Assembly: GCA_023144005.1 (NCBI GenBank)
Contig: JAGLGN010000006.1
Location: 62,001 to 126,000, forward strand
Source of the DNA: a bacterium
Lineage (GTDB): Bacteria; AUK180
Direction of reading: 5' to 3'
Length of the DNA: 64,000 bases
Positions within the stretch are counted from its first letter, which is position 1. Every line of letters begins with the position of its first letter. Shown here one piece after another: positions 10,080 to 30,000 of the stretch. The translations under genes and the position numbers were made by a program. Under the pieces are notes generated by a model. That model was not told the DNA's origin. It ran no database searches and saw only the letters and a program-made list of their open reading frames with translations.

Positions 10080-13000
10080 TCATGAGATTTCAATCAACAG
10101 CTGATCCAGCAATATCCTGATTTCATGGATATCCGTTGATTCTACCTGCCTGACATTATTTATTGCCTTCAGACATTCCAGTATCGCTTTTTCCCTGTCT
10201 TCCGCTGTCGGGATCTTTTCAAGACACTTGATCGCATTGAAAATGAATTTCATTTCCTTTTCATCAGCATCAAGCTCATTCAGCATTTCAATAATATCCG
10301 AGTTCAAGGTTTCAGGATCATATGATACCGACTCGGTGAACGCGAAGGGCTCCTCTTCCCACCAAATGCCGTTCGCCAGATAGGAGACCTCTGTAGTAAA
10401 TATAAACTCATCACCTGTATCGGGCAGTCTCGCAAAGACATAATACTTTCTGGTTTCCCCGGCAGTGATCAGCTCATTCCAATCGACGATATTCGATTCA
10501 ATCTCACCGACAGGTATTACTTCTATTATCTCAGTTCCTTCCGGAAGTATCTCACTGATCTTCGTCTGAAGGTCGAAGACATTGGATTTCACGCTTATCC
10601 TGACCGTATTGTATCCACCGGAGATTACACTTTCTTCTTCCGGCTTGACGTAGTCAATTGCGGCGGCAAGGATATCTCCAGCATCTTCAAGAGAGCTGAA
10701 TATATCAAAGGCAAAGTATACCGTCTTTCCTTCTCCATAATTATTCCCGATGATGACGGGTGACGGCAGATGCGGCGATACTGTCACATAGCCGCTCTCA
10801 AAGGACCCAAGGGATTCCACTGTATAGGTCGTCCCTGTAGTTGTCAATACTCCTTCTTCGGTGATCGGTGAATTAACAAGATTAATGGTCAGGTTATATC
10901 CATCATAGACACCGCTGTAACGGATCCCGAGAACTTCAGGAACTACTCCTTCTCCCAGGAAATGATAATAATGAGAGGTGATAAGGCCCTTTCCCGAATA
11001 GACATGTTCTCTCAATTCTTCCGAGGTATGCCCTTCGAGATTTTCCGCATTCCCGAGAATAATATATTCGTTATATGAACCGGACCTCATACCGGAAACA
11101 AATTCACCGCTTGACTCTACAATGTCATATGTAATGATCCCTCCCAGATTATCAAAGTATTCAGATAATTGTTCATGCTGGTCTTCAGAAACATTGCTGA
11201 AATTTTCCCATATAAGGATACTTGGAATAACTGAAATATCCGCACTGATATCAAAAGCCTCCACAAGCTCAAACTGCAATGAGTTGATTGATTCAACATT
11301 TCCGGTATTATCAATACTTCTATATTCAATGGTATGCAGACCATAACCAAATGAGGCCAGATTCATAGATTCTGTATAATGGCGCCACTCGTCATCGTCA
11401 AACCGGTATTGCGTATACTGAACTCCGCTCAATGCATCATCAGCATGAAGTATGATCATACTTCCTTTTATAACCTCATTCAAACTGCTTATCGGATTAA
11501 CTTCTATCCGAGTCTGTGCAGAAGTGAGGTCAATTGTGAATGAGGTGAAGTGCTCGTCTGAGTATTCCCCTCCAAGATCTCGAGCATACAGATAAACCTC
11601 ATATACCCCATCGTCTGTAACGGGTTCATTATCGAGGTCTTTTCCATTCCAGGTAAAAGTAATTGGAACCTCGTTTGGAGCATTTGCCTCACTCCAATAA
11701 ATCTCATCTCCATCTCGATTGAAAATACCCAAATGAACAATCGATTCCTCTGACACCGAAACACTCACTGCCAGGCTATCATTTACGCCGTCTCCATTTG
11801 GACTTAAATATTCCGGGGCAATTGAAATTGAAAGGATTTCCGGCGGACCGGGCTCATTGTGATGATAGCAAAGTGCATAATATGAAAGATGGAGCATCTC
11901 GATTGTAATCTGATTGCTGTCGTAATCCCTTGTAGTGAGAAGTTCGTCCGGCTGTGCTATAACCCATTCCGAATTCTCTTCATCGTAAGTGTAAGCCTGA
12001 TAATTCGCTTCATCATACCCGAGAATAGTCAAATCATCGTAATTAAAGGCTATCTCTATATTATCTTTGAAATAATTGATCCCCGATCTTGAACTGATCT
12101 CGTATACATCTCCTATCACCATCCCAGATATTTCCGAGTACTCAGGCACTGAAGAAACATTGTCAACACTTGTTATCTCAATGTACTCCATTCCCTGGTA
12201 TAGGTCGTCACTCTCAATCTCAACTTCAACAAGACCATCACTACTTACAATATCTCCCGGGGCATTGTAGTATTCCGGATCACATGGATCTTCCCAAATC
12301 ATATATCGAATCTTAATATCTGTTATATCGTTGGCTTCGTCATAATCAGAATACACGAGGTGGCCCTGGTCACTCCACTCATAAAAAGACTTAGCACCAT
12401 TATTTTCTCTTTTAGTCTTGAATTCAAATAACATTCCCTGATCCATTCCCGTATAATCCATGTAGAAGATTGCCTTCCGAATATAATCATTTGCCGGATC
12501 GTCATCCAATGTTCGAATGAAGCTGATCTTATCACCATTTCCAGTCCATTGTATAGAATTTTCATCTATACTGTTGTCAGTAAAATATGTTAATTGAACA
12601 GGTGGATGAAAATTATCTGTATTGTAGGGCTGAATATATCCTTCATAAGGAATATTCCTTTTAATTAACCAAATGTTCCAAAAACCTCCTGCACTAGACA
12701 AATATATAATTTTAGATCCATCAGGAGAGAATTCTGGATTTTTCTCCATTGCAGAATCATTTGTAAGCCATATTCGTCTTTCAATGAAGTCTTCATCATG
12801 GACAAAGACGAGATCTTTCCTTCCACGAGTTTCAGGATCATACCCACTTACTTCGAAAAATGAAGCTACCACTGCTTCTTCATATTGTTCTCCAGGAGCA
12901 ATGCTACTCGTAGTATAAGAGAAACAAGATACCCAAATAGGAGGATCATACTCATCAAGAAATAATTTAAAATCAATTACTTTCGCTGGGTAAATCTGAG

Positions 13001-16000
13001 GAAAATCGTCAATAATCAAGGATTTCTGGTACAATTCACCGGTAATCCACACAGGTAGTCTAAAGTATCTATTCGCTATAGTATAGGACAATTTTCTCGA
13101 ATTATTCGCTGATTTCAAGTGACTTATTATATCAATATGATTTCCATCATAATACGTTTCTTCTCCACCAGAATGATGCACAGACTTCAGCTCATTTCTT
13201 TCTAATGCGCCCCAGTCAGTAAATGTTGACTCAATAAACGCAATACGAGGGATCCTGTATTTATCAACGAACCAAGTGGGTATATTTATAACTTCTTCCG
13301 AACTATATAAATTCCCCTTCTCCGATGTACTGATATCATGTCTAGTAAGTTCACTGCGGTTGTCAATATAGAAAAGATATTTGGAATCAGTCGGTTCCCA
13401 GATTGGTTCTGTTGAATGATTGCCAGGTAGATTGTTTGTAATATTCTGCGGGTCACTCATGTGAGAAAGTTCCGTTTGAATCATATCTATCGTTACATTG
13501 GTTGTTGAATCCGTAAACCAATGAAGATTGTCATCTACCCAGACTTGAACTTGATATTCTGCATCACCTAAAAGATTTCCATCTGCATCTGTCCCATCCC
13601 AGGATATCACATATTCTCCATTATTCTCTACCGGAAATAAGACTTTTACAAGATTTGTATTTACAATCGGACCATTATATATTGCAATAACACATTCATA
13701 ATACAATCCAGAACCATCATCATGTGCTGCAATCCTAAATTCTACATTATCGTTGCACTCATCGTTATTTGGACTGAATATACTTGGACTTACATCAATC
13801 GAGTCAATGATAGGAGGTTGATCGTCAAGAAATATTTGTTGATGATGAACTTCCTCTGAATTTCCCACATTATCCTGGCTATAATATTCAATTGAATTTA
13901 AACCCGGAAGCATAAGTGTGTCATGAATTCTAAAGGGCGCGGTATAGATCTGCCAAGAGGAGTCGTTGATTCTAAAATATGTATTTTCTACTCCTGTCGC
14001 AAGCTCGCCTTCATCCCTTGCGGTTAAAGAGATCTGGGAATAATTCACAACATATGATATTTCTTGTGTTTCGTAAACACTATACCTCAATGATATATCA
14101 GTAACTGGTGGCAATATATCTTGTTTTCCTTCTATCACCGCAACAGAAATCCCGCCTGCTTTACATTGGTCATAAGCATAGAATCTTCCTTCCAGTTCAT
14201 CTTTTTGGAAAATCTTAATCCGATTGGCTGCAAGTGAACCGGCACCAGGTGAAGTTACGATCTCGTCATACCCGTCAAGGTCTATGTCACCGCAATCGTG
14301 AATACAGCCATTGGTATTAGGAGCAAGATATGCATTGAAATTGTAAATAGGGACCGGATAAGCAGAATCCATATTAAGAATATCATATACTCGGATATTT
14401 GAATCATTGCCCTGCACCTCGCCTTTCGAGCAAACAATCTCTTCATAGTTTTTACCACTGATATTTCCACAACTCAGATATACTCCTGAGGTTACAATAT
14501 CTCCAAATGCAAAGAAAGATTTTTCAGGAGAAGGATAATCTTCGTTGATATTCTCATAGCTAAATATGTTAATTCGTGAATCATTGCTCGCGCCCGGTCC
14601 CTTTCCTACGATTATTTCATCTACTCCATCATCATCAACATCTCCACAGGAAACATTGGCTCCATGTTTTATATCATTTGAAAACGCAAAAAAGGATTTT
14701 GTTTCAGTAGCGTTATAACTAGAGTCTGTTTTCTCAATCTTGAATATTTTGACTTTGGCATAATAGTTCAAATGATGGCCCTTTCCCGCAATGATCTCAT
14801 CCACTCCATCGCCGTCAATATCACCGGCAGCAATCGCGCAACCATAATTATTTACTCCAAATGCACAAAAACTGATCAGTTTTTCCATTGTATAAAACGA
14901 GTAAATATCAATATAGCTGTCGTTGCCATCTTTTGATATTTTTGAAACAATGATCTCTTCCACGCCGTTTCCATCAATATCTCCAGTAGTGACATTCACT
15001 CCTTTTGTTGGAAATTCACTAACACCGAAAGTCTCGGGAAAGCCGTCTTTGGTAAATGATTTTATCATATCTCCTGATCTTGAAGCAGTTATAATATCGG
15101 TATTTTGCACCGGCAATTCAATATCGATATATGTATCGTATGCTGATTCCGGCTTAGCCGGTTCAATATTGCATGAAGAATCTTTGGAAATACTCTTGAA
15201 GTAAATCCTATCGGTGTTTTTTGAAAATTGGGTCCAGGGGAAATTCGAACTTGTGCTATGGGTATATTCAGTCCCACATGCGTCAATATTCCAGATTTCC
15301 CAAGAACCGTCGTTAATTTTGTAATTAATGTTAAATCCCAAAGGATCGCCCGAATTATCCGCGCCACTCCATGAAACTGGGGTAAAAAGTTTCTTGTCAG
15401 TAATCGGTGAGGCCAAACTTACCACTGTAGAAAATGGGGGGGTTACATCTGGTTCGACCGGATTGTCTTTTCTCCCGTAAACGTACACAATATTGCTGAA
15501 TTCACCACTCCAAAAGGAGTATTTTTTTGATACGGTAATTTTAAGTCTGTTCTCATTCTCTATTATCTCGAAACTGGCTTCGGTATTGCTGTTTTCTTCG
15601 TATTCAACACCGTCATAATCATAGATAGGGAATTCCGGATCACCATCTATGTAGAATACTTTTTCAGAATCAAAGGCTGATAACTGTACTGCAATCAGTT
15701 CATTTCTGTTCCCGCCGTACGAATACTCAAATGGGTTTATAGAGGGTCCCATGTTTTCACCGTCCTCGACTGTAACACTAAAATTGATCGCCTCAGGATC
15801 AAAAGGACTCCACATATCCTGAGAATTTATCCAGTAGATAAATGTTCTTACTGTACAGCCCGCGATTCCGCAACCGTAGTTTTTGAAGGACCCCGGTACA
15901 ACTTCCGCCCAGCCATAGTCATTAATATAAGAATCGAATTCAAGACCGTTACTGCTTGCTGAAATTTCCGGCTGCGAAGAATGAGTGTACGGAAAAGTAA

Positions 16001-18425
16001 CATCCATCCTGATCTCACGGCGATTCGCATGATAAAGGCCGAAAACATCATAAGCGAAAAGTATTGTCTCATCCGCATATTGTTCATATGTGTATGTGGT
16101 TGTTTCAATATTAAAATTGATTCTTCTTACAGTGCTATTGCCTGCTTTGTCAATTGCGTAAATATCTAAGACATGATGCCCTTCTGAAGCGATCTGTTCC
16201 CCTTCATTGTAAGGATTTCCGTCTAAAGTTATATACGAAATGTCACTGTTAATGTTTTGATCGATCATGAATATTTGTGGGAGGATTATTGTATTCTGAA
16301 ATATGTCTCCATCTTTAACACCGTAAACATCTATCAAAGGTGCAGTTTTATCGATAATTATTTTACTCTCGAATCTTGTAGTATTACCTGCAATATCGCT
16401 GGCATATACATTCAGATTGTAAATACCTTCATTATCAAGTTCAATGCTGTTTTCAGAAGGAATCCCATCAAGAAGTATCTCCGATTCTACCAGATGATCT
16501 TCTATAATATCAATATTTAAAGCAACATTTGTATTAAAATATCGTTTGCTGCCCGATGAAATGGAGCTGGCGCTATTTATTTCCGAAACTAATATTTGTG
16601 GAAATGTTTTATCAACATTTATCAGTATCTCATCTTCGGTGACATTGTCCGCACCATCGGTAACAACTAATTTGAGTTTGTATTCTCCGCCACTTGTTAA
16701 AGTGGTCGTGTCCCAGACAACAAGTAAAGAATCGGTAACTGAAATATTTTGCTGCTTATTAATAATTGTGGTGTACTCCGTAGAATCCTTTTTCGCATAT
16801 GATATTTCATAACTACGGATATGATCATCTGTCGCTGTACCCTTGATGTTACATGATGCGCCAACCCATTGATCTGCAACCGGATATGTGATCTCCGCTA
16901 TAGGAGGAACTCTATCAAGAAGAACATTTACAATGTGTCGTTTAAATAAACCGTCACCATCCATACCTTTCAAAATAAATCGATATCCGCCATCAGTTTC
17001 TAAAGCAGGATCCCAATTGTAGACAACCTCTGAAGAAACGGATTGATCGGAAACATATATATCCCCACTCATATTGAAAACGGGATCATCCAGTGGCAGC
17101 AGAGTTCTCTCGCCTGTAGTTAAGTTCTTCTTCATCAGGATCCAGTAAATATCGGATGAAGAAATCGGAGAAATAGAGGCGGTTACATCAATAAGCTGAC
17201 TACTGGCAATCCCCGTCCCGTCAGTAGGATATTCCAATACTGCTTGGGGTACGCTCCCTGTTTCTTCAAGTTCAATATGAGCAAACTGTCCCCATATCTC
17301 AGTATAGAATTCACCGTCAATATTTGAAAAAATACTTATCTCACTTCCTCTGGCACATGTTAGAATGTCCTCAGTTTCTTCTCCTCTGAAATATCCCGTA
17401 TTTGGGATAAGAAAATCTGAACTTCTTTGCTGGAATACTTCAATGACCGTTCCTGTGAAATCAATTATTGTAGAATGTCCTCCCAAACCGGTGATGAGAA
17501 TTTCTGGGTTTCCCGTATTGTCATAATTAAAAATACGAATTCCCATAACTGTGGTAGGTATAGTGAATAGGGTCCTATTGAATGATATCGCTCCATCATA
17601 CGTAAGAATATCGACATTACCATTGACATCGCCTAATAGAATATCCGCAATTCCGTCACCATCAAGATCTCCAGCAGCAGGAGGACAGACCAGAATATTT
17701 CCGCTATCGAAAGTGATCCAACCGGCAGTATAATTCCATACAGCAACACTACCGTCTCCACAATTTGCGAATATTTCAGAGATACCGTCCTCGTCAATAT
17801 CCTTGAGGGTAAGATATGTATATTCTCCTGAAGTGACAGTATGGGTTTCGATTTCTACCCATGAAGTTCCATCGTGATCATCCCACACATACACATTGCC
17901 ATCTGAAGTCCCTGCAACAAAATCAAGATCTCCATCGCCGTCCATATCGGACGCAATTGGCGTATCACTGATAGGTACATTAATGTCTCTTGGCCAGCCG
18001 GCCACATCGCTGCCACTTGAATGGAATGCGTGCATCTTGATATTGCCTACAGAATCCTTTGAACAGACAAGTATCTCAGAAGCCCTGTCATTATCAAGAT
18101 CGACGAGAATCGGAGAAGTATAGAAGACTCTTCCGGTCAGGGCTTTCGGCCAGCCCGTAACAACCTTTCGATACCGATTCCAGACGGTGAGCCGTCCGTC
18201 ATCTGAAACAGTCGCGATCTCACGGCCTGTCGCCAGAAAGATTCCTTCTATTCCGTCAATATCTCCGAGTGCAGAAGAATCGAGTGAGACAGATGGAATC
18301 AGAATAAAGGCAATGACAAGTGATAATAAACCAAATATCTTTGAATCCAATTTTATTTTATTGTACATATTCAACCCCTTATTATTCCTCCTTTTCTGAG
18401 AAAATATATTGATCTTACTCTTCAT
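10080..18425 (-). CDS. Giant secreted FG-GAP/Ig-like/PD40 repeat protein
   Basis: A ~2781-residue exported protein. A basic N-terminus precedes a hydrophobic span (GLLSLVIAFILIPSVSL). Rough order: FG-GAP/VCBS repeats with DxDxDG calcium-type loops (62-315); Ig-like modules; a second FG-GAP block (1135-1395) with several DIDGDGVDEI loops; an FlgD-like Ig module with SPNND (1545-1640); PD40/TolB-like WSPDG repeats (1655-2020); another FlgD-like module with SPNGDGVND (2205-2295); a Rossmann-like segment (2390-2580); and a C-terminal Ig-like stalk. It is most likely an adhesin or surface scaffold. I chose ATG 18425, with GGAGG five bases upstream; 18437 and 18368 are alternatives. It overlaps the ankyrin gene by 11 bases, so it is the third gene of the RHS operon. 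Local GC swings strongly (17 of 60 bases at 13081-13140 against 34 of 60 at 10321-10380), suggesting mosaic origin. Confidence 0.8.
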   Translation of the reverse strand: MKSKINIFSQKRRNNKGLNMYNKIKLDSKIFGLLSLVIAFILIPSVSLDSSALGDIDGIEGIFLATGREIATVSDDGRLTVWNRYRKVVTGWPKALTGRVFYTSPILVDLDNDRASEILVCSKDSVGNIKMHAFHSSGSDVAGWPRDINVPISDTPIASDMDGDGDLDFVAGTSDGNVYVWDDHDGTSWVEIETHTVTSGEYTYLTLKDIDEDGISEIFANCGDGSVAVWNYTAGWITFDSGNILVCPPAAGDLDGDGIADILLGDVNGNVDILTYDGAISFNRTLFTIPTTVMGIRIFNYDNTGNPEILITGLGGHSTIIDFTGTVIEVFQQRSSDFLIPNTGYFRGEETEDILTCARGSEISIFSNIDGEFYTEIWGQFAHIELEETGSVPQAVLEYPTDGTGIASSQLIDVTASISPISSSDIYWILMKKNLTTGERTLLPLDDPVFNMSGDIYVSDQSVSSEVVYNWDPALETDGGYRFILKGMDGDGLFKRHIVNVLLDRVPPIAEITYPVADQWVGASCNIKGTATDDHIRSYEISYAKKDSTEYTTIINKQQNISVTDSLLVVWDTTTLTSGGEYKLKLVVTDGADNVTEDEILINVDKTFPQILVSEINSASSISSGSKRYFNTNVALNIDIIEDHLVESEILLDGIPSENSIELDNEGIYNLNVYASDIAGNTTRFESKIIIDKTAPLIDVYGVKDGDIFQNTIILPQIFMIDQNINSDISYITLDGNPYNEGEQIASEGHHVLDIYAIDKAGNSTVRRINFNIETTTYTYEQYADETILFAYDVFGLYHANRREIRMDVTFPYTHSSQPEISASSNGLEFDSYINDYGWAEVVPGSFKNYGCGIAGCTVRTFIYWINSQDMWSPFDPEAINFSVTVEDGENMGPSINPFEYSYGGNRNELIAVQLSAFDSEKVFYIDGDPEFPIYDYDGVEYEENSNTEASFEIIENENRLKITVSKKYSFWSGEFSNIVYVYGRKDNPVEPDVTPPFSTVVSLASPITDKKLFTPVSWSGADNSGDPLGFNINYKINDGSWEIWNIDACGTEYTHSTSSNFPWTQFSKNTDRIYFKSISKDSSCNIEPAKPESAYDTYIDIELPVQNTDIITASRSGDMIKSFTKDGFPETFGVSEFPTKGVNVTTGDIDGNGVEEIIVSKISKDGNDSYIDIYSFYTMEKLISFCAFGVNNYGCAIAAGDIDGDGVDEIIAGKGHHLNYYAKVKIFKIEKTDSSYNATETKSFFAFSNDIKHGANVSCGDVDDDGVDEIIVGKGPGASNDSRINIFSYENINEDYPSPEKSFFAFGDIVTSGVYLSCGNISGKNYEEIVCSKGEVQGNDSNIRVYDILNMDSAYPVPIYNFNAYLAPNTNGCIHDCGDIDLDGYDEIVTSPGAGSLAANRIKIFQKDELEGRFYAYDQCKAGGISVAVIEGKQDILPPVTDISLRYSVYETQEISYVVNYSQISLTARDEGELATGVENTYFRINDSSWQIYTAPFRIHDTLMLPGLNSIEYYSQDNVGNSEEVHHQQIFLDDQPPIIDSIDVSPSIFSPNNDECNDNVEFRIAAHDDGSGLYYECVIAIYNGPIVNTNLVKVLFPVENNGEYVISWDGTDADGNLLGDAEYQVQVWVDDNLHWFTDSTTNVTIDMIQTELSHMSDPQNITNNLPGNHSTEPIWEPTDSKYLFYIDNRSELTRHDISTSEKGNLYSSEEVINIPTWFVDKYRIPRIAFIESTFTDWGALERNELKSVHHSGGEETYYDGNHIDIISHLKSANNSRKLSYTIANRYFRLPVWITGELYQKSLIIDDFPQIYPAKVIDFKLFLDEYDPPIWVSCFSYTTSSIAPGEQYEEAVVASFFEVSGYDPETRGRKDLVFVHDEDFIERRIWLTNDSAMEKNPEFSPDGSKIIYLSSAGGFWNIWLIKRNIPYEGYIQPYNTDNFHPPVQLTYFTDNSIDENSIQWTGNGDKISFIRTLDDDPANDYIRKAIFYMDYTGMDQGMLFEFKTKRENNGAKSFYEWSDQGHLVYSDYDEANDITDIKIRYMIWEDPCDPEYYNAPGDIVSSDGLVEVEIESDDLYQGMEYIEITSVDNVSSVPEYSEISGMVIGDVYEISSRSGINYFKDNIEIAFNYDDLTILGYDEANYQAYTYDEENSEWVIAQPDELLTTRDYDSNQITIEMLHLSYYALCYHHNEPGPPEILSISIAPEYLSPNGDGVNDSLAVSVSVSEESIVHLGIFNRDGDEIYWSEANAPNEVPITFTWNGKDLDNEPVTDDGVYEVYLYARDLGGEYSDEHFTSFTIDLTSAQTRIEVNPISSLNEVIKGSMIILHADDALSGVQYTQYRFDDDEWRHYTESMNLASFGYGLHTIEYRSIDNTGNVESINSLQFELVEAFDISADISVIPSILIWENFSNVSEDQHEQLSEYFDNLGGIITYDIVESSGEFVSGMRSGSYNEYIILGNAENLEGHTSEELREHVYSGKGLITSHYYHFLGEGVVPEVLGIRYSGVYDGYNLTINLVNSPITEEGVLTTTGTTYTVESLGSFESGYVTVSPHLPSPVIIGNNYGEGKTVYFAFDIFSSLEDAGDILAAAIDYVKPEEESVISGGYNTVRISVKSNVFDLQTKISEILPEGTEIIEVIPVGEIESNIVDWNELITAGETRKYYVFARLPDTGDEFIFTTEVSYLANGIWWEEEPFAFTESVSYDPETLNSDIIEMLNELDADEKEMKFIFNAIKCLEKIPTAEDREKAILECLKAINNVRQVESTDIHEIRILLDQLLIEIS

Positions 18426-19371
18426 GCTTTCCTCCATACTTTTTAAGTAGTTTGATTATCTTGTCAAATTCATTCTGTCGCCTTATATCGCCTTCAAGAT
18501 CCGTTCGCTCTGCAATAGCAATATCCAATGGTGTTTGACCTTTTTCATCTTTTATATTCGGATCAGCACCCCTTTTTAAGAGAATTTCACATGCCTCGTA
18601 GTGTCTTCTAAATACTGAATTAAAAAGAGGGGTCCAAGTTGTCTCAGGAAATCCTCCGGAAATTTTAGCGCCGCTGTCCAATAAAAGTGTAATTGCAGTT
18701 AATTGATTCCTTTGAGCAGCCCCGTTCAGTGGTGTCATTCCGTGTTGATCGTTGATTTCCGTATCCGCTCCTTTTTCAAGCAGTAATTTTACAATTTCAT
18801 TATATCCCTGTGAAGAAGCTTTGTGTAGCGCAGTGCTTTTTGTGAATATTGCTTTATTTACATCTTCAGTTTCAATAAATTTCTTCACTGCATCTATATC
18901 ATTTCTGAATACGGCATAATACAATTCATCTGTTTCGATAACTTCATTTTTAATAGTATCTACAATAAATACCGATTGCCTTATTAGGGATTGACCAATG
19001 TATAATCGGTATATACCTTTTTCCTGGGTCTTTTCCATATGACACCAGTCTTTAGGGTTATTTGACGTCCCAAATGCCCAGGCACCGGCGTCAGCATCGA
19101 AAAAATGGATCTCTAATTTCTTCTTTTTACCGTTCTGTTCGATATACAGATATGATCTGATATGTGCAAAAAGCATTTTCATTCCAAGTGTAGGACCGGA
19201 ATCTATTGTGATTATTTCCAAATAATAATGCACTGGCCCTTCCTCGGTCTGAAATGTTTGTTTTTCATTTACCCATCTTCCTCTACATCCTGAAGAAGAA
19301 ATCAGAATGATCAAAACAATACTTGGCAATATTACATCTTTCAGCAGCCAATCCCTACTACCAATCTTCAT
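18415..19371 (-). CDS. Ankyrin-repeat lipoprotein, candidate immunity protein
   Basis: A 318-residue protein. A lysine-containing start and a hydrophobic span run into ISSSGC, a plausible though atypical lipobox, so it is probably a membrane lipoprotein facing the periplasm. Residues ~30-150 form an unrecognised beta-rich domain. Residues ~155-310 hold four to five ankyrin repeats (for example TALHKASSQGYNEIVKLLL and TPLDIAIAE). I chose ATG 19371 because it follows the RHS stop by one base (TAG-T-ATG) and gives a clean signal peptide; a longer frame to 19533 would lie inside the RHS gene and lose it. A small ankyrin lipoprotein directly after a toxin-tipped RHS gene fits an immunity protein; that role is inferred. 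Composition is AT-rich like the RHS gene. Confidence 0.8.
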   Translation of the reverse strand: MKIGSRDWLLKDVILPSIVLIILISSSGCRGRWVNEKQTFQTEEGPVHYYLEIITIDSGPTLGMKMLFAHIRSYLYIEQNGKKKKLEIHFFDADAGAWAFGTSNNPKDWCHMEKTQEKGIYRLYIGQSLIRQSVFIVDTIKNEVIETDELYYAVFRNDIDAVKKFIETEDVNKAIFTKSTALHKASSQGYNEIVKLLLEKGADTEINDQHGMTPLNGAAQRNQLTAITLLLDSGAKISGGFPETTWTPLFNSVFRRHYEACEILLKRGADPNIKDEKGQTPLDIAIAERTDLEGDIRRQNEFDKIIKLLKKYGGKHEE

Positions 19372-19372
19372 A

Positions 19373-22300
19373 CTATTTTCCGGTCCTTTTTTTAAGCATC
19401 TGGTCCCAAACATGTTTCGAAAGCATATTCGAATGATGGCTTTCGCCAAATAATAATGCTTTGGTAGCAACTTCAATATCTTTTGCCTTATCATCTGTTC
19501 TTCCCGTAAAGAAAAATGAAAAAGCCACAGCATTCATGTAGCAGTTAGTGCCTAGAAATTCTGTAAGTATTGGCCCGCCGACTAATTGAACTCGATCTTT
19601 GTTGGAATAGACATTGTAGTAGTTGACAACATTACTCATATCCATTTCGTAATCGACCCTTTGCGGGGTTGCGAAGGTAATAATAGTTTGTACTTCTTGT
19701 GAAAATGAGGGGGAGGCTTCCTTTACAATATTCCCTCCGTGGCTATGCGCAATTATATGTATTTTTTCATTTCCAATTATTGTATAGTTATCAATATATT
19801 CAAGCAAGGCCTTAGCGCCTGCGGTTCTTGCCTCTGGAGTATTAGCTTCAGAAAGTGATGCGGGCCAATAAATTGGATGAACTGGATTGCCTTCGTCCCC
19901 AAGCGATCTCTGAATATAATTCATATACTCTTCATCCGGAGTCCAAGATTCATCACCAGACCCCGTACCCTTCACGGTAATTACCACATATCCGGCATAA
20001 TCAATATTGGATAATGGATTATTACTTCCGTAAATATATCTGTTTAAAGATTGAGGATTGGCGGAGCTTCCAATGAGTTTATCCTTTGAAATAAATCTGC
20101 CTAATTCCGAAAAGTAATACCTTGCTCCGAAATTGTCGAGGCCCGTTTCAATGTCCCTTTCCTTTCCTGTAAATAAATGAGCCTCTTCTTCTCCTTGAGA
20201 TAGGATCATATTTCCGAACGGATCCAATGTATTTTCAGTAACTATCTCCCCAAGCTCATCGGTAATGATTATATTATTGCCTATATAATCCTGATGATAA
20301 TATGCTATGCTTCCAGTACTATTTTCTGCCAATGTAATTCTATTTCCTGCGTATACAAAAGTATTTTGTCTTGCACCGGTTTTATCGTATTCTTCGATTA
20401 CATTTCCTCCAATATCATAGATATAGATCGTTGTATTGCCAGGAGTTGTCTTAATTATTCTCCTTCCTTCGCCATCATAAGCAAATGATATTGAATATTC
20501 AATAATCCCGGGTTGATTCAAATCAGGCTCTCCCGGATTTTGGAAATCCACTCGTGTTAGCAAATTATCATAGTTATAACTAAATATTTTTTTCTTGACT
20601 TGACCACTTAGATTAGAGACCGTTTCCGAAATAATATTTCCATTGTTGTCATATACATAATTATGCGTACTTCCATTGCTACCTGAGTCAACGGTCATTG
20701 TGCTCAACTGATCTGAATTTCCCGTGTAATTGTAGCCAATATCTTCATAACTGGATTGCTGAGACACTCTATTTCCAGTAGAATCATAAGCGTAGCTTGC
20801 ATCATTGGCGTCAGGATAATCCACCGATGTAAGCCTGATCAGTGGATCATAAGTATAATTAGTGGTACTCCCGTTAATTTTAGCCCTAGAAATAATACTA
20901 CCGTTCTTATCATAGTTAAAATCGTCTTTATACATTAGTTGATTAATTCCTTTAAATATTTGATGAGAATCAATCAATCCTCGAGCGTTGTAAGTAAATT
21001 TCGTTGTTGAAATTGTTCCGTAATTAGAAGTTAATTCCTTTTGTGTAACATTCCCGAGGTTGTTATATTCATACCCAGCTATATCTTTATTATCGTACTT
21101 GATTGTATCCACCCATCCATGATCGTTCCTCTCATATAATACTTTCTTTCCCGATGGATAAGTTATTTCCTTTAATTCACCAGTCTCATAATATATATAT
21201 GTTGAAATATACTCTGCATCGTTAATAGTATCCTTTTTCTGGACAAATCTCCCCATAGAATCATAGACATATTCTGTGCTACTCTCTATCTCTAGTGGGG
21301 ATTCCGGCAAACTATAATATGATATTTTCTCCGTTAAATCATTATCAAAATACTTAAAGGTTTTTTTCGTGTCATCTGGGTATTTTCTTTCTATTATCCG
21401 ATTGAAGTCATCATAATCGAGATAAATTTTGTTATCATTCATGTCTTGTGTATACTCTACGAGGCTAGATGATATATACGAGGTATGCTTAATCAGGCCT
21501 TCGCTGCATCCATCGTATCTATCGTATATATCATAATTTATATCTGTAATGAATCCTCGAGCATTAGTAATCCGTGCTATATCATTAAACATTCCATTGT
21601 ATTCGTACGTTGTGACTCCATTTGTACCTGGTTCATCACAACGGATTATTCTTCCAATCTTATCCATAGTGAAAATCGTCTGATTACCTTCCGGATCCTT
21701 AACAATCTTTTTCATATTGCCATCATCATATGTAATTGAAGAATTTGTCCCATCAGGATAATTAATCTGAATCAATCGATATTGTTTATCATATACATAC
21801 TCTGTTGTCTTTTTCTCAGCATCAGTAATTGTCTTGATCTTTCCACCAGGATGATATGAGTATGTCGTTGATAACCCAGCTTCGTCAATTTTGATGAGTC
21901 TTTTAATAGAATTATAATAATAGGTTGTGACTCGACCTGCGTCATCAACGGTTACTATATTATTAATATCATCCAACGTATATGAAATATTTGTTTTGTC
22001 CGGCCTTGTTTCATTCAACACTCTCCCAAGATTATCATAGTTGAATTCACTATAATTCCCAAGATTATCAAATTCTAGCTTGATTAGACCATTGGGATAA
22101 TACTCATACTTATTAAAAAGTTCACCATTCCTACGTACTTCCGTAAGATTTCCTTCAGCACTGTACGAAAGAGAATGTACAAGATCTTCATTCAACTCAA
22201 ATTTCTCGGTCACAAGACCCTTGCTATTGTATGAAAATCTTGTGTCGGAAATTTGTGCAAGATATCGTCTCTCTATATTTCCCCTAATATTTCCCTCATC

Positions 22301-23824
22301 ATAGTATTCTGTATTTATTTCGATATTATTTCCATTCAATGTTTCACTTTGTCTAGTTTGCAGGCCGATTATGTACAGCCCTGTTGGGGTCTCCGAATTG
22401 AACTCATCTATATTTAAATAAGTATAAGTGTAAATATATGACAACGGATTTGTATATAAAGTTATATTACCGTAAGCATCATATTCATATGATTCAAGAT
22501 AATCAATTTCTTGATCATCTTCTGGAGACTTTCGAGTTCTTGTTGCTTGTTCAAGATTTAGTTTCTCTTTATCAACCCAATCCTGATGAGGAGGTCCATC
22601 AATAACCCAGTCATTTACAGTAACAACACCGGGTTGCTCACTTCTCACCATTTTGAATGTATAAATAAATTCTCCAGCAGCTTCAGTGTTATTAATATAG
22701 AATTTTTCAAACCAAAATTTGCTCAAATATCCGTTTGGGTCGGTTACTTCCGTATAATGAAGGTATATTCTACCCCAATAAGGATCTGCACATGCTTCAC
22801 CTTCATCATATGTATTTTTCACTAGATCAAATCTATATGTAGATACTTCATCTGAATTTTCTGCACTTTTTAGAGTTTTTGTAAGCTGCAATCCTTGAAG
22901 AAATTCAGAAGTACAAATACTGCCGTTCAATTTTTCCTCGTTTTCAATTGTATCAAATGACAGGTAGTCATATTTAACAATAGCACCAGATGAATATGTA
23001 ATTTCCGTAAGCTTCCATTGGAAATCATTGTAAATATCTGTATCATAGAGCTCATAGGAGTACTTTGTTTCCCGGCCATTTGGATTAACGACTTTTGTTA
23101 ATAACGAATTATCGTCATATTCATATGAAAAAGATATTTCCACCTCTTCATGATTCTTATATTTAATTCTACTGATCAAACCCTTATCGGCATCGAAATA
23201 TTCAAATGTGTAGTCATATCTCCCCGCTGAATCAAATACCGATACTATCTGAAATGGTGGCAAGGGACTTCTAATTAATCGAATATTATTATCATTCTTG
23301 TCCAGAATCTTTATTGGAAGTCCATGAAAATTGAAGGTAATCTTCGTCCCATTTGGTTTAGCTAATACCCATGTATTAGTTGTATCTTCATATATCAGTT
23401 TATCGCGGACTCCTGGCTCCAATGGGATTCCCTCATCTGACGGGTGTCCCGTCATGAAATAGGTTTGTCGAGAACCATCTCCATAGATTACTATGGCTTT
23501 ATTACTTGCGCTGGGATAATCTGTTTCAATACGATTAATTCCATTTACACTGAACGACCATTCGCAATTCTGATATCGCAAATTGCTATTATATGTTCTA
23601 GTAATAATTAATGGGATTCCAACTCCAGGTGCTGAAACATCTGTGTGTCGAATAATAATATTACCGTTAAACAGATTAATATCCTCTTCCGTACGATCGC
23701 TGGCAAATGCCTGCAATGGAGAATAACCAAGTCCATTTACACCCGGTTCAGTCGGCTCTGCAACTGAATAGCAATTAAGCCCGATTATTAGAAGTAATAA
23801 TACAATTGAAAATTTAGTTTTCAT
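19373..23824 (-). CDS. RHS/YD-repeat protein with lipase-like C-terminal tip
   Basis: A 1483-residue protein with a Sec signal peptide (MKTKFSIVLLLLIIGLNCYSVA) and an RHS shell of many YD repeats (about 380-1200). A typical RHS core follows (GKERDIETGLDNFGARYY, then GRFISKDK and NRYIYGSNNPL) before a variable tip from about residue 1279. The ~205-residue tip has AHSHGG, the nucleophile elbow of alpha/beta hydrolases (S1361), with D1410 and H1463/H1464 placed to complete a triad, so it is probably a lipase or esterase. RHS shells enclose and deliver toxic C-termini; a lipase tip would attack membranes. It has its own promoter and GGGAGAGAGGA site and is followed by the ankyrin lipoprotein one base later. 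AT-rich composition suggests horizontal acquisition. Confidence 0.88.
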   Translation of the reverse strand: MKTKFSIVLLLLIIGLNCYSVAEPTEPGVNGLGYSPLQAFASDRTEEDINLFNGNIIIRHTDVSAPGVGIPLIITRTYNSNLRYQNCEWSFSVNGINRIETDYPSASNKAIVIYGDGSRQTYFMTGHPSDEGIPLEPGVRDKLIYEDTTNTWVLAKPNGTKITFNFHGLPIKILDKNDNNIRLIRSPLPPFQIVSVFDSAGRYDYTFEYFDADKGLISRIKYKNHEEVEISFSYEYDDNSLLTKVVNPNGRETKYSYELYDTDIYNDFQWKLTEITYSSGAIVKYDYLSFDTIENEEKLNGSICTSEFLQGLQLTKTLKSAENSDEVSTYRFDLVKNTYDEGEACADPYWGRIYLHYTEVTDPNGYLSKFWFEKFYINNTEAAGEFIYTFKMVRSEQPGVVTVNDWVIDGPPHQDWVDKEKLNLEQATRTRKSPEDDQEIDYLESYEYDAYGNITLYTNPLSYIYTYTYLNIDEFNSETPTGLYIIGLQTRQSETLNGNNIEINTEYYDEGNIRGNIERRYLAQISDTRFSYNSKGLVTEKFELNEDLVHSLSYSAEGNLTEVRRNGELFNKYEYYPNGLIKLEFDNLGNYSEFNYDNLGRVLNETRPDKTNISYTLDDINNIVTVDDAGRVTTYYYNSIKRLIKIDEAGLSTTYSYHPGGKIKTITDAEKKTTEYVYDKQYRLIQINYPDGTNSSITYDDGNMKKIVKDPEGNQTIFTMDKIGRIIRCDEPGTNGVTTYEYNGMFNDIARITNARGFITDINYDIYDRYDGCSEGLIKHTSYISSSLVEYTQDMNDNKIYLDYDDFNRIIERKYPDDTKKTFKYFDNDLTEKISYYSLPESPLEIESSTEYVYDSMGRFVQKKDTINDAEYISTYIYYETGELKEITYPSGKKVLYERNDHGWVDTIKYDNKDIAGYEYNNLGNVTQKELTSNYGTISTTKFTYNARGLIDSHQIFKGINQLMYKDDFNYDKNGSIISRAKINGSTTNYTYDPLIRLTSVDYPDANDASYAYDSTGNRVSQQSSYEDIGYNYTGNSDQLSTMTVDSGSNGSTHNYVYDNNGNIISETVSNLSGQVKKKIFSYNYDNLLTRVDFQNPGEPDLNQPGIIEYSISFAYDGEGRRIIKTTPGNTTIYIYDIGGNVIEEYDKTGARQNTFVYAGNRITLAENSTGSIAYYHQDYIGNNIIITDELGEIVTENTLDPFGNMILSQGEEEAHLFTGKERDIETGLDNFGARYYFSELGRFISKDKLIGSSANPQSLNRYIYGSNNPLSNIDYAGYVVITVKGTGSGDESWTPDEEYMNYIQRSLGDEGNPVHPIYWPASLSEANTPEARTAGAKALLEYIDNYTIIGNEKIHIIAHSHGGNIVKEASPSFSQEVQTIITFATPQRVDYEMDMSNVVNYYNVYSNKDRVQLVGGPILTEFLGTNCYMNAVAFSFFFTGRTDDKAKDIEVATKALLFGESHHSNMLSKHVWDQMLKKRTGK

Positions 23825-23855: not shown

Positions 23856-23885
23856 ATTATACACTTAATCGTTATTTAAAATCAA
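23856..23885 (-). promoter_or_regulatory. Promoter of the RHS operon
   Basis: On the minus strand TTGATT (23880-23885), an 18-base spacer and TATAAT (23856-23861) lie about 30 bases before the ATG at 23824, which has GGGAGAGAGGA just upstream. This is an ordinary leadered promoter, unlike the leaderless class elsewhere in the window. Confidence 0.6.
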
Positions 23886-23983
23886 TAGAATCTCGTCTCT
23901 TTTTGGAAATTCTCAAGTTAATCAGAATCATGCAGAAACCCGTTACTCTTTTGATGTAAAATTGATTGAAAACAATAATTTCA

Positions 23984-24003
23984 GGGAGGGTCGAAACCCT
24001 CCC
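23984..24003 (-). terminator. 8-bp hairpin after the lamin-tail/PLD gene
   Basis: GGGAGGGT and ACCCTCCC pair perfectly around CGAA, starting ten bases after the stop codon at 24014 on the minus strand. The following minus-strand bases (TGAAATTATTGTTTTC) are only moderately T-rich, so it is a possible but not textbook terminator. It separates this gene from the RHS operon promoter. Confidence 0.55.
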
Positions 24004-24013
24004 CGTTTATACA

Positions 24014-27000
24014 TTATCTGATGATAGCGAATTTATAGTAATCCGATCCGGCTTCCGTCTCTATGACCAGTATATAAACACCCGATGCGAGCCTGTTGTC
24101 GTCATCATTGGTGGTATCCCAGTCGATCGTAGGATTGCCGGGATCTGAAATATCGACATCCGCGGTTTCAAATTCTCTGACCTTCTCTCCCGCGACATTG
24201 TAAATAGCCATGGTATCAAAGAGCGCAGGAATGTGATCGAAGAATATCTGCTCTGTAGTCACGGCAGGATTAGGATAGATCCTGACATCTTCAAAGACAA
24301 ATGCCTTGCTCTCAACATAGCCGTACAAGCCGTATGTGGAGAAGTGATTCGTCTGAATGGTCAATGTATTCGCGTCAACATCCACTTCACCGCCGATGAG
24401 CTCCCATTGTGCGGGAGACAGCGTCGAATTGTAATACCAGACCTTGAGATTGCCTTCGTACACAGTGCTACCGTCAACATAGCCGTCCTGATCCGCATCC
24501 GCATATGCGATGACCATCGTAACGGGCTCGTCAAATGTAATTCCGGCGTCATCCGCGTAGAACTCTCTGACCTCACCGGTCTCGACCATCTTGTCATCTG
24601 TTACCGCAGGGACAAAATCAGGAGGTGATACCGAAAGTGAAGTATTGTCCTGAAGCGCATCCGCGGGAACATGTACCTGAGTAAAGGAATTGTCAAAGAG
24701 GATACCTCCTGACGGGCCTACCTCGACCTGTGTCTCAATGGGCAAGATCGAAAGCGTGTATGTGTCCCCTACCTTTGTAATATAGGTTATCTTATCACCG
24801 CCGGCGGGTGCCCAGCTCATGAACGCTTCATTGAAGGAATTGTTCCCGATGATCTGAGGAATAAAATTAACATCGGCATCATCGGTAGCCAGCACAGGAT
24901 CATCCCAATTTGTCATATAGGTATTGAAATTGACACCTGTTAACGAATCGGTAACTGCTGTACCGGATGAAACATCATTGAATATAGCATTGTCAAATAG
25001 GTCGTTCTCATCCTGCACATAGGAAATTATACCGCCATTCTCATTGTTTCCAAGTGACCAGGAAGGTGACCATTTGGGAAGAGTATTATATGCGGCGGAA
25101 GCATTCCCCGGAGCATGAGTGACAAGTGTCATTCTAGCATCTCCAAGCACGGTAACCATATTGGACGGGCTGCCCGTTGCTTCACCGATTGCGGTATTAA
25201 TGATCTCTTCCACATCGTTAAGAATGTATATCTGAGTAGAATCATCTGTCCTGGATTCGTAAACGAAAGCCACTTTCAGCTCGTCCGCGTCCGGATAACC
25301 GGCCGCCGGTCCCCACCACCATTTCGGCTGGAGACATCTCGATGCTGTGGCAGAATATTCGTCGGAAAGATGCGTCAGTTTGATAACAGATAGATCCTGA
25401 TTATCCGCATCGATCGGGAGCGCGCCAAGATCTATCGCATAAAGGTCGCCACCGATGGTGACCACCAGACGATCTGTCGAGTCCGGCTGCTGCGCGGCGG
25501 GACAATAATCAGGGTCATACCATCCATGCCATGTATCCGTTGTCAATTCAACTGGAGAGCCGGTGCCATCGTCAAGTCGCCTGAAAAGCCGGGAATGGTC
25601 TTCTGCGCTGTTATATGTCGCATAGTAAATATAACCGTCCGTGCCCCATGCGATCTGGCTGAAGTATAATACATCCTCAAGATTTGTGGTCAATTGCACA
25701 GGGGAATTCGATGTATTGGAAACATCAAGCGTGTACACATTACAGACACCGTTTGAATCAGAAACATAAGCCACTTCTGTGCCGTCAGGTGACCACACAG
25801 GGAAGAGATCGTATCTTCCGCCTGTAACCGTGGTCGCATCGAAGTTATTAACCTCATTCACGGCGATATTGATCCCGGATTCATAAGGAACCATAAATTT
25901 AGCGGTGAACGGAGCGACTATTGTAGTTCCAACTCCAAGGCCGTCCAGTATCGTTTCAGATACCGCTATCGTATATGTTTCACCGGGAATGAGATCCAGT
26001 CCCGGAATAACGCGGAGCACTCTGTTGTCGGTAAGGGCATAGAAAGAATCAACGCCGGGATGAGGAGCACCGCTGTCCTTTGTCAGGGAGTATGCGGTCG
26101 TATCGCCCAGGGTATAACTGTCGAATGGGGCTGTGAATTCAACATTGATCTCTTTATATTTATCAGATGCTGTGGTATGTACCGAATACGCTTTTTTCAC
26201 CGTAAGCGGCGGATATATCGAGACATCTATCGTATGCACAGCGGATCCACTCAAAATAGAAGGATCATCAACAACCGTTACTCTGAGAGTTCTCGGTACC
26301 TGTCCGGTCGTCGGCTCATAGTCGATCAATCTTACCGTGCCGTCGCTGCCCACAAGGGCGCCGGTAACGGATACATCGTTGCCGCCGTCCACATTCGTGG
26401 CGCCGGTAAGCGTTGTTGTGTCAATATCTTCAGAGTTATCCGCTACAAAATCATCGATCGTAAGTGTAATATCCAAAGTGGCATTGGGATCACCCTCAGG
26501 CGCTTGATTGCCGTATTCATCGACAAGCCGTATGGTGAAGGTCGCGGAATCTCCTACCAGTATACCATTGGAGAACGGGCCTTCAACCTCAATATGATCT
26601 CCCGCAAGAGCAACAAGGTTTACCTCGGGTGAATCATCGTATGGATAGACAATGTCGCTTCCGGAGAATTTTGTTCCGAATGGGAAATCGTTACCGGATG
26701 CCTTCGTACCCACCGTAATGTCATTTCCCGTTCCATATGTCAGGACCATTGTTTCATTCTGTGACATCGAAACGATCGGAATACTGATATGATTCCCCGA
26801 AATAGAGAATGACCCTATTACCGCGTCTTCGCTGGCAGAAATCGATATAAATGAGGTATCGGGTGCTGTCCAGCCGTCCGCAACGGGGAGAATATTGATA
26901 GATACAACGCCATCTGAAACAGGGCATTGAGGTACAAATCTGAATTGCCATTTCGTGCCGGAATCCAGTATATCATGAGAAGATGTTAAGGTATATGCAA

Positions 27001-30000
27001 AACCGGCGATCGTATCGCTGACCTGCATAATTCCCGTACCGTCATAATCCAGAACATTGGCGGCACCCGGAGAAAGAGTAGTGGTCCTCGCCCAATCATA
27101 TAGATTATCAGAATCCGAGGCAAGTGATATTCTTACCAAAGAATCAGAGTAATTGTATAAAGAACTGTTGGAACAGTCTGATTCCTGCGGAGAAGCACCT
27201 TCGATCAGCCATTGGCCTTCAACTACAAGAGTCGGAACATCCCCCGGGATATCCGTACCGACACCGTCATCATTTGCCCAGACCGCACAATCATAATAAA
27301 CCGCTCCGTTCATCAAAGCCGCTTGGTCATCCGTATCGGTCAAGGGCGTATCATCGACATAAAGGTCAACAAATCCGTTGCCGTTCGTATCTCCGGTACC
27401 GTCTGTCTCATCCGGTTCTCCTACGATCCAGTGGACTACAACATAGTCGCCCGTATGAACGGTAACAGCTGAACCAGCAAAAGAGGTATCCGTACCATCC
27501 ATGTCCGTGATCAAAAAGGAAGAAATGTCGATACCGGCACCGCCGACATCTTTTATGTATAATTCAACCCAGTCATGAGTTCCCCAATAATCGGAACTTG
27601 TAGAGCTGGATTCAAAATTCACTTCTGAGATCAATATTATTCCGTCAAGAACCGTAACGACGGGATTATTGGCAACTTCATAAGGGAATTCGCCGACTAC
27701 CTTTGAACCTGAATAGTATATGTATCCGCCGAGAGCAGCTGGAGAAGTAACGCTTACGAATTCAAGCGCCGAAGTAGCGCCGGGCTCAAGGTAATCACCT
27801 GTAAATCCATCGACCCAGATTGCAGTACCGCCGCCGGCCGCCGCACCGTAAGTGCCGACAGTATGCAAACCGCCATCGGTTCCAAGAAGGTTTATCGTCC
27901 AGCCGTTGGGATCGCCGAAGGCCGCAGGGACAACTGTATAATACATCTCGATCGGCTCTGTTGCGGTCACAAATTCCAGCGTAAAGTCATAAGAAGTACT
28001 TGGCCGGACCTTATTCGGGGTCACGAACATCTTTCCGCTTGGTACAGGAGTTGTATTGGGCATACCCGGGGTCGGGCTGCCGTTGGCAATAACACTCCAA
28101 TCAACTTTATCGTTTGTGTCTGTGGAATCACCGTCTCTGGCAATACTTCCGTTCGTACCGTCATTATTGATGCATACTGCGTCATTCTCGCGGTCATCAG
28201 CGGACACGGAACCGACAATACAAGAGCCGGGGGCATAATCATACCACTCGCCGTTTTCCTGAGCGGCGTCAAAGAATGTCGTGGTTGCGGACCAATTCCC
28301 GGGGCAGCTCGTCCAGTCAGCCCAGGCGACAAAGTCAAGGATGTGATCGCCGGAATCTTTTAATGTCAGATACGAATCACCGCTGCTGAGAGCGAGCCCA
28401 TTATCATAGATACGGGCAACATTGTCAACGACCTGTGCTTCCGAATCATTTGAACCGGTCGTCCCTTCGATGAGAAGGTACTGACCTGTTTTTATTATCA
28501 CACTCGGAAGTGTAACCTCCGCACCGTTCTCCTCATAAATTATATATCCGTCCAGATCAATACCGTTACCACCATTTGTATCGTCAAGGCAGTAGATTTC
28601 GATCCAGTCCCATTCCAATTTAATGCCTCTGAAATAATTAATACTGGTCGTGGAACCGTAATAGCAGACCTCATTTATTACAAGAAGCGGAAGGTTGGCA
28701 TTTCCTGAGCCGGGAGTAGGCGAGCCCTCTATCAGCCAGTCCTCTATCTGATTATTGTCAAAACCATCGGACTTCCTGGCAAATGAATATAATTCTTTCG
28801 CAACAGGGTCCAAAAGATCTGAATTAAGGAAATCTGTTGTTTCGACAGTACCCAATACAGCATAGTCCTCCCATTGATTATTGTCGATAAGGATCGTGAA
28901 ATCTGTCGTTTCGCCGGTTCTGAATGAGGCATCACCATGCTCCGCCCATCCGACCGCGTCAACAAATCTGTCCAGATTATCCTTTAGTACCACCTGCTCA
29001 TCTGTCGCTATCATCTGACCGTTTTCAGCGCCGTTCACATAAATGTCCCATTTCGTATCACCTTTGCCTGTACCATCCGTCTCGTCTGTTGAACTTAAGG
29101 GCGTTTCCCATGTAACAAGAAGCAGATCGCCGTCCGCAAGTGTGATATCCGGCAGCACCTTGATCTTATCATTCGGAGTATCGCTGTCGCTGAATCTTGT
29201 AAGATACCAGTTCTGTACATTTATTGGTCCGCCGGAAGCGCAATATATCTCTATCCAATCCTCTGTATTATCGCCTCTGAAGAAAACTTCATTAATAACA
29301 ACAACACCCGCCCTAATATTTATAGCCGGCGTGGGTGAGACCTCGGAAAGCTCTGGTGCATTTGGATTTGAATCCCAGTCAACCTTTGTAGTAAAGGCGG
29401 TGGGGCCGGCTGATGACGGTGAAGTGAAATTTGTGAATACGAAATCCACAGATTCAGTACCGCCGGTACCGCCGGATATGATCTCCTCTGTCGAGGGACA
29501 TATGAGTTTTACCCAGGTACCGCCCGTTTCGGCAGTAAATGTGACATCGGTAACAAGATTGTAATAATGACCGTCATTTCTTTTTACGATGGTATTCGCC
29601 GAAGACGGCGCGGGAGACCATGTATCCGGAAACCATACACTCACCTTGGTCATATTATCACCGGAGGTGCCGTTATGTGTTACGGTCAATGTAATTGTTT
29701 TCACTTCATTGGTCGAACATGTAAGCGGGACTATATCAGCATCCGCCGGAGTAATATTCGCCGAAGGGCCATAACGCGCTCTGAATTCCTGATAGAATTC
29801 ATTCGCTACATTGGCGTCATGTATAATGATCGTATTCTCATCATTGTCGCCGGTAACATCGGTAGCGTTTGTCCAGTTAGTCGAACCCGTAATGACCACA
29901 GGGTCCGAGCGCACGCTGTCACAGTCGATTATCATATATTTATGGTGAAGAAGGCCGGGGACACTGTCTTTTTTGACATCCATACCGTCAGCGACCATAT

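What the first reader, a model, noticed from the sequence alone, without database searches (positions are those of the whole stretch)
18415..23824. RHS protein with lipase tip and an adjoining ankyrin lipoprotein: candidate effector-immunity pair
Seen: the RHS core (GRFISKDK, NRYIYGSNNPL) ends near residue 1278, and the ~205-residue tip has AHSHGG (S1361) with D1410 and H1463/1464 able to form an alpha/beta-hydrolase triad. One base after its stop starts an ankyrin-repeat protein with a lipoprotein signal. Known: RHS shells carry toxic C-termini, and immunity to membrane-active lipases must sit at the periplasmic side, where a lipoprotein would be. Inference: a contact or secreted lipase toxin and its immunity protein. 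The RHS part has a plain Sec signal and no visible VgrG/PAAR partner, so the delivery route would be new.
Basis: partly seen in the sequence, partly recalled or inferred. Interest (0 to 1): 0.75.

Follow-up and report, generated by a model that had tools for sequence, protein, structure and literature searches.

The report
Exported RHS lipase toxin with immunity lipoprotein
An uncultured bacterium carries a large exported shell protein tipped with a lipid-cutting enzyme, next to a membrane-anchored protein that probably protects it from that enzyme; the pair belongs to a large interchangeable toxin arsenal whose protective partners almost all look envelope-located.

Summary
In detail: RHS protein 23824-19373 (-), 1483 aa; ankyrin lipoprotein 19371-18415 (-), starting one base after its stop. 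The effector-immunity reading is well supported.

Homology to RHS relatives stops at about residue 1278. The tip models as a minimal alpha/beta-hydrolase (VIA Z 14.5 to a rumen lipase, 14.3 to B. subtilis LipA). A homologue (BLASTP E 4e-20; S1361, D1410, H1464 conserved) ends a DUF637 haemagglutinin (CdiA-type) in an alphaproteobacterial MAG, so this lipase sits on two kinds of polymorphic-toxin carrier.

The window genome and a same-genus relative hold RHS loci with orphan tip cassettes and tip swapping: shells 83-85% identical, then unrelated tips at the core boundary; one tip-partner pair is shared between species at 93%/90%. 46 of 47 tip partners start with a membrane or lipoprotein segment; the exception is a mis-chosen ORF.

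No T6SS sheath gene was found; SprA and T9SS sorting domains were, one in the upstream neighbour. Toxicity, immunity and delivery are inferred.

The parts
19373..23824 (-). RHS polymorphic toxin, 1483 aa: Sec signal (about 1-22), DUF6531 (48-122), YD/RHS repeats, Rhs_assc_core (1201-1278), C-terminal tip (1279-1483)
19376..19990 (-). C-terminal tip, 205 aa: minimal alpha/beta-hydrolase, proposed triad S1361, D1410, H1464
   Evidence: Pfam Abhydrolase_1 E 6e-4 (below curated cut-off); homologue on a CdiA-type protein, BLASTP E 4e-20, triad residues conserved; AlphaFold2 model with 14-row alignment, pLDDT 59, pTM 0.60, VIA Z 14.5
18415..19371 (-). putative immunity lipoprotein, 318 aa: signal and lipobox-like ISSSGC (about 1-29), unassigned domain (about 30-145), ankyrin repeats (about 150-290)
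   Evidence: starts 1 nt after the RHS stop
10080..18425 (-). 2781-aa surface protein (FG-GAP, FlgD_ig, OmpL47-type domains, CHU_C); ATG preceded by GGAGG lies inside the end of the ankyrin gene, so probably co-transcribed; its C-terminal region recurs in large genes directly upstream of RHS genes elsewhere
24014..32653 (-). upstream 2879-aa surface protein (lamin-tail domains, two PLD-like domains) with C-terminal T9SS type A sorting domain TIGR04183 (31.8 bits, cut-off 23)
23856..23885 (-). promoter-like site TTGATT-18-TATAAT in the 189-nt gap before the RHS gene (pattern match only)
23982..24005 (-). terminator-like hairpin after the upstream gene (pattern match only)

Best explanation
This is a full-length member of a polymorphic RHS toxin family. 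The protein is exported through Sec and is thought to fold into an RHS shell enclosing the C-terminal 205-aa tip. The tip is a minimal serine lipase/esterase of the alpha/beta-hydrolase fold that would attack lipids of a competitor's envelope on delivery. The adjoining ankyrin lipoprotein, translated right after it, is anchored on the periplasmic side and binds the tip, protecting the producer and its kin. Shown by sequence: anatomy, tip boundary, clade-wide tip swapping, a tip homologue on a CdiA-type carrier with conserved triad residues, and near-universal envelope signals on tip partners. Inferred: shell folding, lipid substrate, toxicity, immunity, and how the protein crosses the outer membrane and reaches a target.
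For: Tip boundary near 1278 seen against many relatives. Same-genus shells C28/C86 and C8/C86 are 83% and 85% identical up to the core end, with no detectable similarity between those tips. The G000 C13 tip and partner recur in G001 as an orphan cassette (93% and 90%). Tip and partner homology co-occur: 11 pairs share both, of 22 tip-homologous and 25 partner-homologous among 1081 (Fisher 5e-14, rows not independent). 46 of 47 partners start with a hydrophobic segment vs 21 of 54 other ORFs (Fisher 3e-11). Tip homologue at the end of a DUF637 haemagglutinin. Fold: Foldseek top hits are cutinases and lipases, VIA Z 14.5/14.3 over 157/152 residues. [quoted passage not shown]
Against: No second copy of this tip-ankyrin pair was found, so the pairing rests on adjacency and analogy. 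The CdiA-type homologue is followed by a different, multi-TM protein. Ankyrin repeats are generic binders. The tip is below Pfam's curated cut-offs (20.1 vs 25.8 bits). The model is only moderately confident and the loop holding H1463/H1464 is below pLDDT 50; its alignment included lipases, which biases the N-terminal half. The RHS protein has no recognised T9SS signal, so its route past the outer membrane is unknown.
Confidence: 0.77

Rival explanations
1. The tip is a toxin, but the ankyrin lipoprotein is a chaperone or activator rather than (or as well as) an immunity protein, as cytosolic Tli is for E. cloacae Tle.
For: Tli has both roles (PMC11470151); the ankyrin gene is translated right after the tip.
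Against: Partners across the clade nearly all carry membrane or lipoprotein signals and are mostly mutually unrelated, which fits immunity better than a shared folding role.
Confidence: 0.12
2. The RHS protein is a surface or secreted nutritional lipase and the ankyrin gene an unrelated neighbour.
For: The organism makes many giant surface proteins; lipases are common exoenzymes; the downstream surface protein shares the apparent operon.
Against: RHS context with swapping tips and orphan cassettes, a CdiA-type homologue, and an adjacent partner gene at every tip examined.
Confidence: 0.06
3. A variant of the best explanation: the tip acts on a non-lipid ester, thioester or amide in the envelope (lipoprotein acyl chain, peptidoglycan or LPS ester) rather than on bulk phospholipid.
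For: Weak matches also to PGAP1, cutinase and palmitoyl-thioesterase families; cutinase and thioesterase structures among the matches.
Against: Best structural matches are minimal lipases; a lipase with an ankyrin-lipoprotein partner has a precedent as a phospholipase.
Confidence: 0.25

Closest known systems
Tle6 (Tle) - Tli of Enterobacter cloacae, a T6SS phospholipase and its ankyrin-repeat lipoprotein immunity protein (PMC11470151)
   Same: alpha/beta-hydrolase lipase effector with an adjacent ankyrin-repeat lipoprotein
   Different: Tle6 is delivered by T6SS; here the tip sits on a Sec-signal RHS protein in a genome where VipB was not found. The lipases were not compared directly. The ankyrin protein has an extra N-terminal domain of about 115 aa.
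WapA (Streptococcus suis, Bacillus subtilis): Sec-exported RHS toxins (PMC12704120)
   Same: Sec signal, RHS shell, polymorphic C-terminus with immunity gene; truncated duplications beside the full-length gene in S. suis
   Different: WapA is Gram-positive with a cell-wall-binding N-terminus. The window protein goes straight from signal to DUF6531, and tip partners here look envelope-located.
CdiA-type polymorphic toxins
   Same: A C-terminal lipase homologous to the window tip occurs on a DUF637 haemagglutinin (L129), followed by a small multi-TM gene
   Different: Different carrier; the downstream protein is not ankyrin.
TANFOR polymorphic toxins of Bacteroidetes (PMC7073777)
   Same: Sec-signal polymorphic toxins encoded beside T9SS substrates in T9SS-bearing genomes; T9SS export only hypothesised
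   Different: TANFOR N-terminus rather than an RHS shell
Tox-ABhydrolase-1 and Imm-ank of Zhang et al. 2012 (PMC3482391)
   Same: alpha/beta-hydrolase toxin domains and ankyrin immunity proteins of polymorphic toxins
   Different: Imm-ank is listed there with Tox-AHH; Tox-ABhydrolase-1 is mainly T6SS-linked. Not compared by sequence here.

Membership tests
RHS polymorphic toxin | RHS/YD repeats and RHS-associated core | tested here: met
   TIGR03696 61.6 bits (cut-off 32.5), RHS_repeat E 1.2e-36
RHS polymorphic toxin | abrupt boundary between conserved shell and variable C-terminal tip | tested here: met
   homology stops near 1278; same-genus shells 83-85% identical then unrelated tips
RHS polymorphic toxin | orphan tip cassettes beside the full-length gene | tested here: inconclusive
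   met at other loci of G000 and G001; the window contig held a single RHS match
RHS polymorphic toxin | toxicity of the tip relieved by the downstream gene | not testable with these tools
   needs an experiment
T6SS Rhs effector | T6SS sheath gene in the genome | tested here: not met
   VipB PF05943 absent; control rang in E. coli; genome 96% complete
T6SS Rhs effector | N-terminal PAAR/VgrG module | tested here: not met
   Pfam scan of the whole protein shows none; a Sec-like signal instead
WapA-type Sec-exported RHS toxin | Sec signal on an RHS protein | tested here: inconclusive
   N-terminal sequence by inspection fits; no signal predictor was available
WapA-type Sec-exported RHS toxin | cell-wall-binding N-terminal domain | tested here: not met
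   no LysM or wall-binding family in the Pfam scan
alpha/beta-hydrolase (lipase/cutinase-like) | fold and nucleophile elbow | tested here: met
   model Z 14.5 to 6nkc, 14.3 to B. subtilis LipA; HSHGG conserved; curated Pfam score not reached
alpha/beta-hydrolase (lipase/cutinase-like) | Ser-Asp-His triad | tested here: inconclusive
   all three residues conserved in one distant homologue; geometry not measurable because the His loop is below pLDDT 50
Tle6-Tli | lipase effector encoded with an ankyrin-repeat lipoprotein | tested here: met
   layout met; this is resemblance of layout, not shown homology
Tle6-Tli | homology to the Tle6 lipase | not tested
   no direct comparison was made
Tle6-Tli | delivery by a T6SS | tested here: not met
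   VipB absent
T9SS cargo | C-terminal sorting domain | tested here: not met
   the RHS protein ends in the lipase tip; no sorting domain found
TANFOR polymorphic toxin | N-terminal TANFOR domain | tested here: inconclusive
   NCBIfam scan lists none, but it was not checked that the library holds the model

The most novel reading that the evidence does not exclude
This lineage runs an RHS system dedicated to envelope-acting toxins: Sec export followed by an outer-membrane route tied to the T9SS and its giant surface proteins, with delivery no further than the target's envelope, so that immunity is always membrane-anchored or periplasmic. The tips, none of which reaches a Pfam family at E 1e-3 except the lipase, would be a reservoir of new envelope toxin-immunity pairs.
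Probability: 0.3. Interest if true: 0.75.

Novelty: new variant of a known kind. Interest (0 to 1): 0.5.

Why it matters
It places a swapping RHS toxin-immunity repertoire in a deeply branching, sparsely sampled lineage that lacks a detectable T6SS sheath, and shows one lipase toxin domain on both RHS and CdiA-type carriers. The near-universal envelope location of the partners makes a testable prediction about where these toxins act, and 46 of 47 tips matched no Pfam family.

Tried and rejected
Tip in relatives: of 145 genomes, only the window's own and one generic hydrolase at E 0.004; of 386 genomes, only generic hydrolases at E 0.004 or worse. Single-sequence genome scan: 29 pattern matches, none confirmed. 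Plasmids and phages: no match for the tip, its CdiA-type homologue (plasmids only) or the ankyrin protein's N-terminal domain (plasmids only). Viral contigs: none confirmed. Hits in long ORFs of other genomes (L108, L118) were checked for RHS and are not RHS. The single-sequence model of the tip was poor (pLDDT 39). G001 C39 was tested as a syntenic locus and rejected: its flanks match the window only through the C-terminal region of the 2781-aa protein and weakly another surface protein. GldL search: nothing rang anywhere, uninformative. Tle6 homology was not tested by sequence; Tle6 does not appear among the 50 structural matches shown. Rfam found nothing in the window.

Full report
Observation. 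The RHS gene (19373-23824, -) and the ankyrin gene (18415-19371, -) are as described. The ORF finder's longer ankyrin ORF (18415-19533) overlaps the RHS gene; the ATG at 19371, one base after the RHS stop, gives the lipoprotein start. The next gene's ATG at 18425, preceded by GGAGG, lies inside the end of the ankyrin gene, so the three genes are probably one transcription unit. A promoter-like site and a terminator-like hairpin lie in the 189-nt gap upstream, as pattern matches only.

Anatomy. Signal-like N-terminus, DUF6531, RHS repeats and Rhs_assc_core ending at 1278. Matches of relatives that reach the core end stop mostly at 1271-1298, with outliers at 1316 and 1330. The tip therefore starts at about 1279. 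The core ends of the clade carry a D..G motif just before the tip, which by analogy with other RHS proteins may mark autocleavage; this was not tested.

Tip. Pfam hits are weak (Abhydrolase_1 E 5.7e-4, below cut-off) and PDB sequence hits are lipases at E 0.011 or worse. A genome scan with a three-row alignment found L129, an alphaproteobacterial MAG contig, where the homologue is the end of an 809-aa open frame carrying DUF637. BLASTP gives E 4e-20 and 30% identity over nearly the whole tip; S1361, D1410 and H1464 fall on identical residues. The model with a 14-row alignment has pLDDT 59 and pTM 0.60. Foldseek's best matches are cutinases and lipases, and VIA gives Z 14.5 to a rumen lipase over 157 residues (rmsd 3.0) and 14.3 to B. 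subtilis LipA over 152 (rmsd 2.8). The alignment included lipases, so the first half of the model is not independent evidence, and the His loop is not resolved.

Clade context. The closest relatives are one same-genus, three same-family and two same-class genomes; the rest are only same-domain. G000 holds RHS loci on C13, C16, C28 and C35, and G001 has 27 Rhs_assc_core matches, many in arrays. I read the loci on G000 C13, C16 and C28 and on contigs of G001, G004, G005 and G006 and extracted 46 tips with downstream partners, plus the window pair. Shells: C28 vs C86 83% over 1-1770 of 1878 and C8 vs C86 85% over 1-1788 of 1918; both alignments stop at the core end and those tips show no BLAST similarity to each other. 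C28 vs C8 (80%) aligns nearly end to end and is not a swap example. C13 vs G001 C145 is 91% over 1-1545, where the contig ends. The C13 tip and its lipoprotein recur in G001 C159 as an orphan cassette at 93% and 90%.

Partners. With a hydropathy rule, 46 of 47 partners have a hydrophobic segment in their first 75 residues against 21 of 54 other ORFs. The exception, L078_7125, was paired with the wrong ORF: the ORF at 6287-7204 overlaps the end of the tip gene and carries nearly the same MINEGVLLVxNKF segment as the partner of the 93%-identical C16 tip. The control ORFs may include non-genes and the rows are related, so the P values are indicative only. No other partner resembles the ankyrin protein. 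None of the 46 other tips matched Pfam at E 1e-3; five have HExxH against a shuffled mean of 0.33, so some are probably metallopeptidases.

Delivery. VipB was not found (the control rang in E. coli). SprA was found at 211 bits (cut-off 200) along with 18 Por_Secre_tail matches, and the gene directly upstream of the RHS gene ends in a T9SS type A sorting domain. Large genes directly upstream of RHS genes on C13, C16 and C28, and near that of G001 C39, share a C-terminal region with the window's 2781-aa protein. This links RHS genes to surface proteins; it does not show T9SS export of the RHS protein, which has no recognised sorting domain.

Mechanism. The tip of a protein exported unfolded through Sec could fold in the producer's own periplasm, so a periplasmic lipoprotein is where protection would be needed; the same holds for a neighbour hit from outside. 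The envelope location of nearly all partners suggests that these tips act in or on the envelope, unlike the cytoplasmic nucleases of B. subtilis WapA (own knowledge and PMC12704120). These steps are inference.

Comparison. Sec-exported RHS toxins (WapA, PMC12704120), Sec/RHS polymorphic toxins and Imm-ank (PMC3482391), lipase plus ankyrin-lipoprotein immunity (Tle6-Tli, PMC11470151) and Sec-signal polymorphic toxins beside T9SS substrates (TANFOR, PMC7073777) are all known. Not seen described in what I read are the combination, the sharing of this lipase between RHS and CdiA-type carriers, and the consistently envelope-type partners.

Verdict. A real effector-immunity candidate, best described as a new variant of a known kind. 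Function, pairing and delivery await experiment.

Noticed in passing
24014-32653 (-): 2879-aa surface protein with lamin-tail domains, two PLD-like domains (HKD-type motifs) and a T9SS type A sorting domain.
   Followed up: partly
10080-18425 (-): The C-terminal region of this 2781-aa protein recurs in large genes directly upstream of RHS genes on C13, C16, C28 (L047-L049), near that of G001 C39, and as a 119-aa remnant downstream of the RHS-partner pair at G001 C39 (L079 4029-4388, 76% over 85 aa).
   Followed up: partly
L047 4019-4732, L073 13879-14589, L074 5882-6481, L081 7247-7906: Four tips share an HExYE motif (HEVYE/HEIYE), two of them 93% identical and the others not detectably related; possibly metallo-enzymes.
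   Followed up: no
L048 5766-6356, L076 321-917, L078 7128-7718 and 9421-9999: A tip family starting DVYxxxW; three of the four have a GHxxIxV...NCA frame reminiscent of permuted NlpC/P60-type enzymes, followed by multi-TM partners.
   Followed up: no
L071 10609-11214 and 15993-16619, L072 16503-16889, L082 2215-2613: Glycine-rich tips with partial mutual similarity, possibly membrane-active.
   Followed up: no
5829-9911 (+): 1360-aa protein with guanylate-cyclase-like, AAA and TPR domains next to the RHS operon.
   Followed up: no
19991-23824: The RHS shell is AT-rich (34.7% GC) against 43.5% for the window; the tip is 40.2%.
   Followed up: partly
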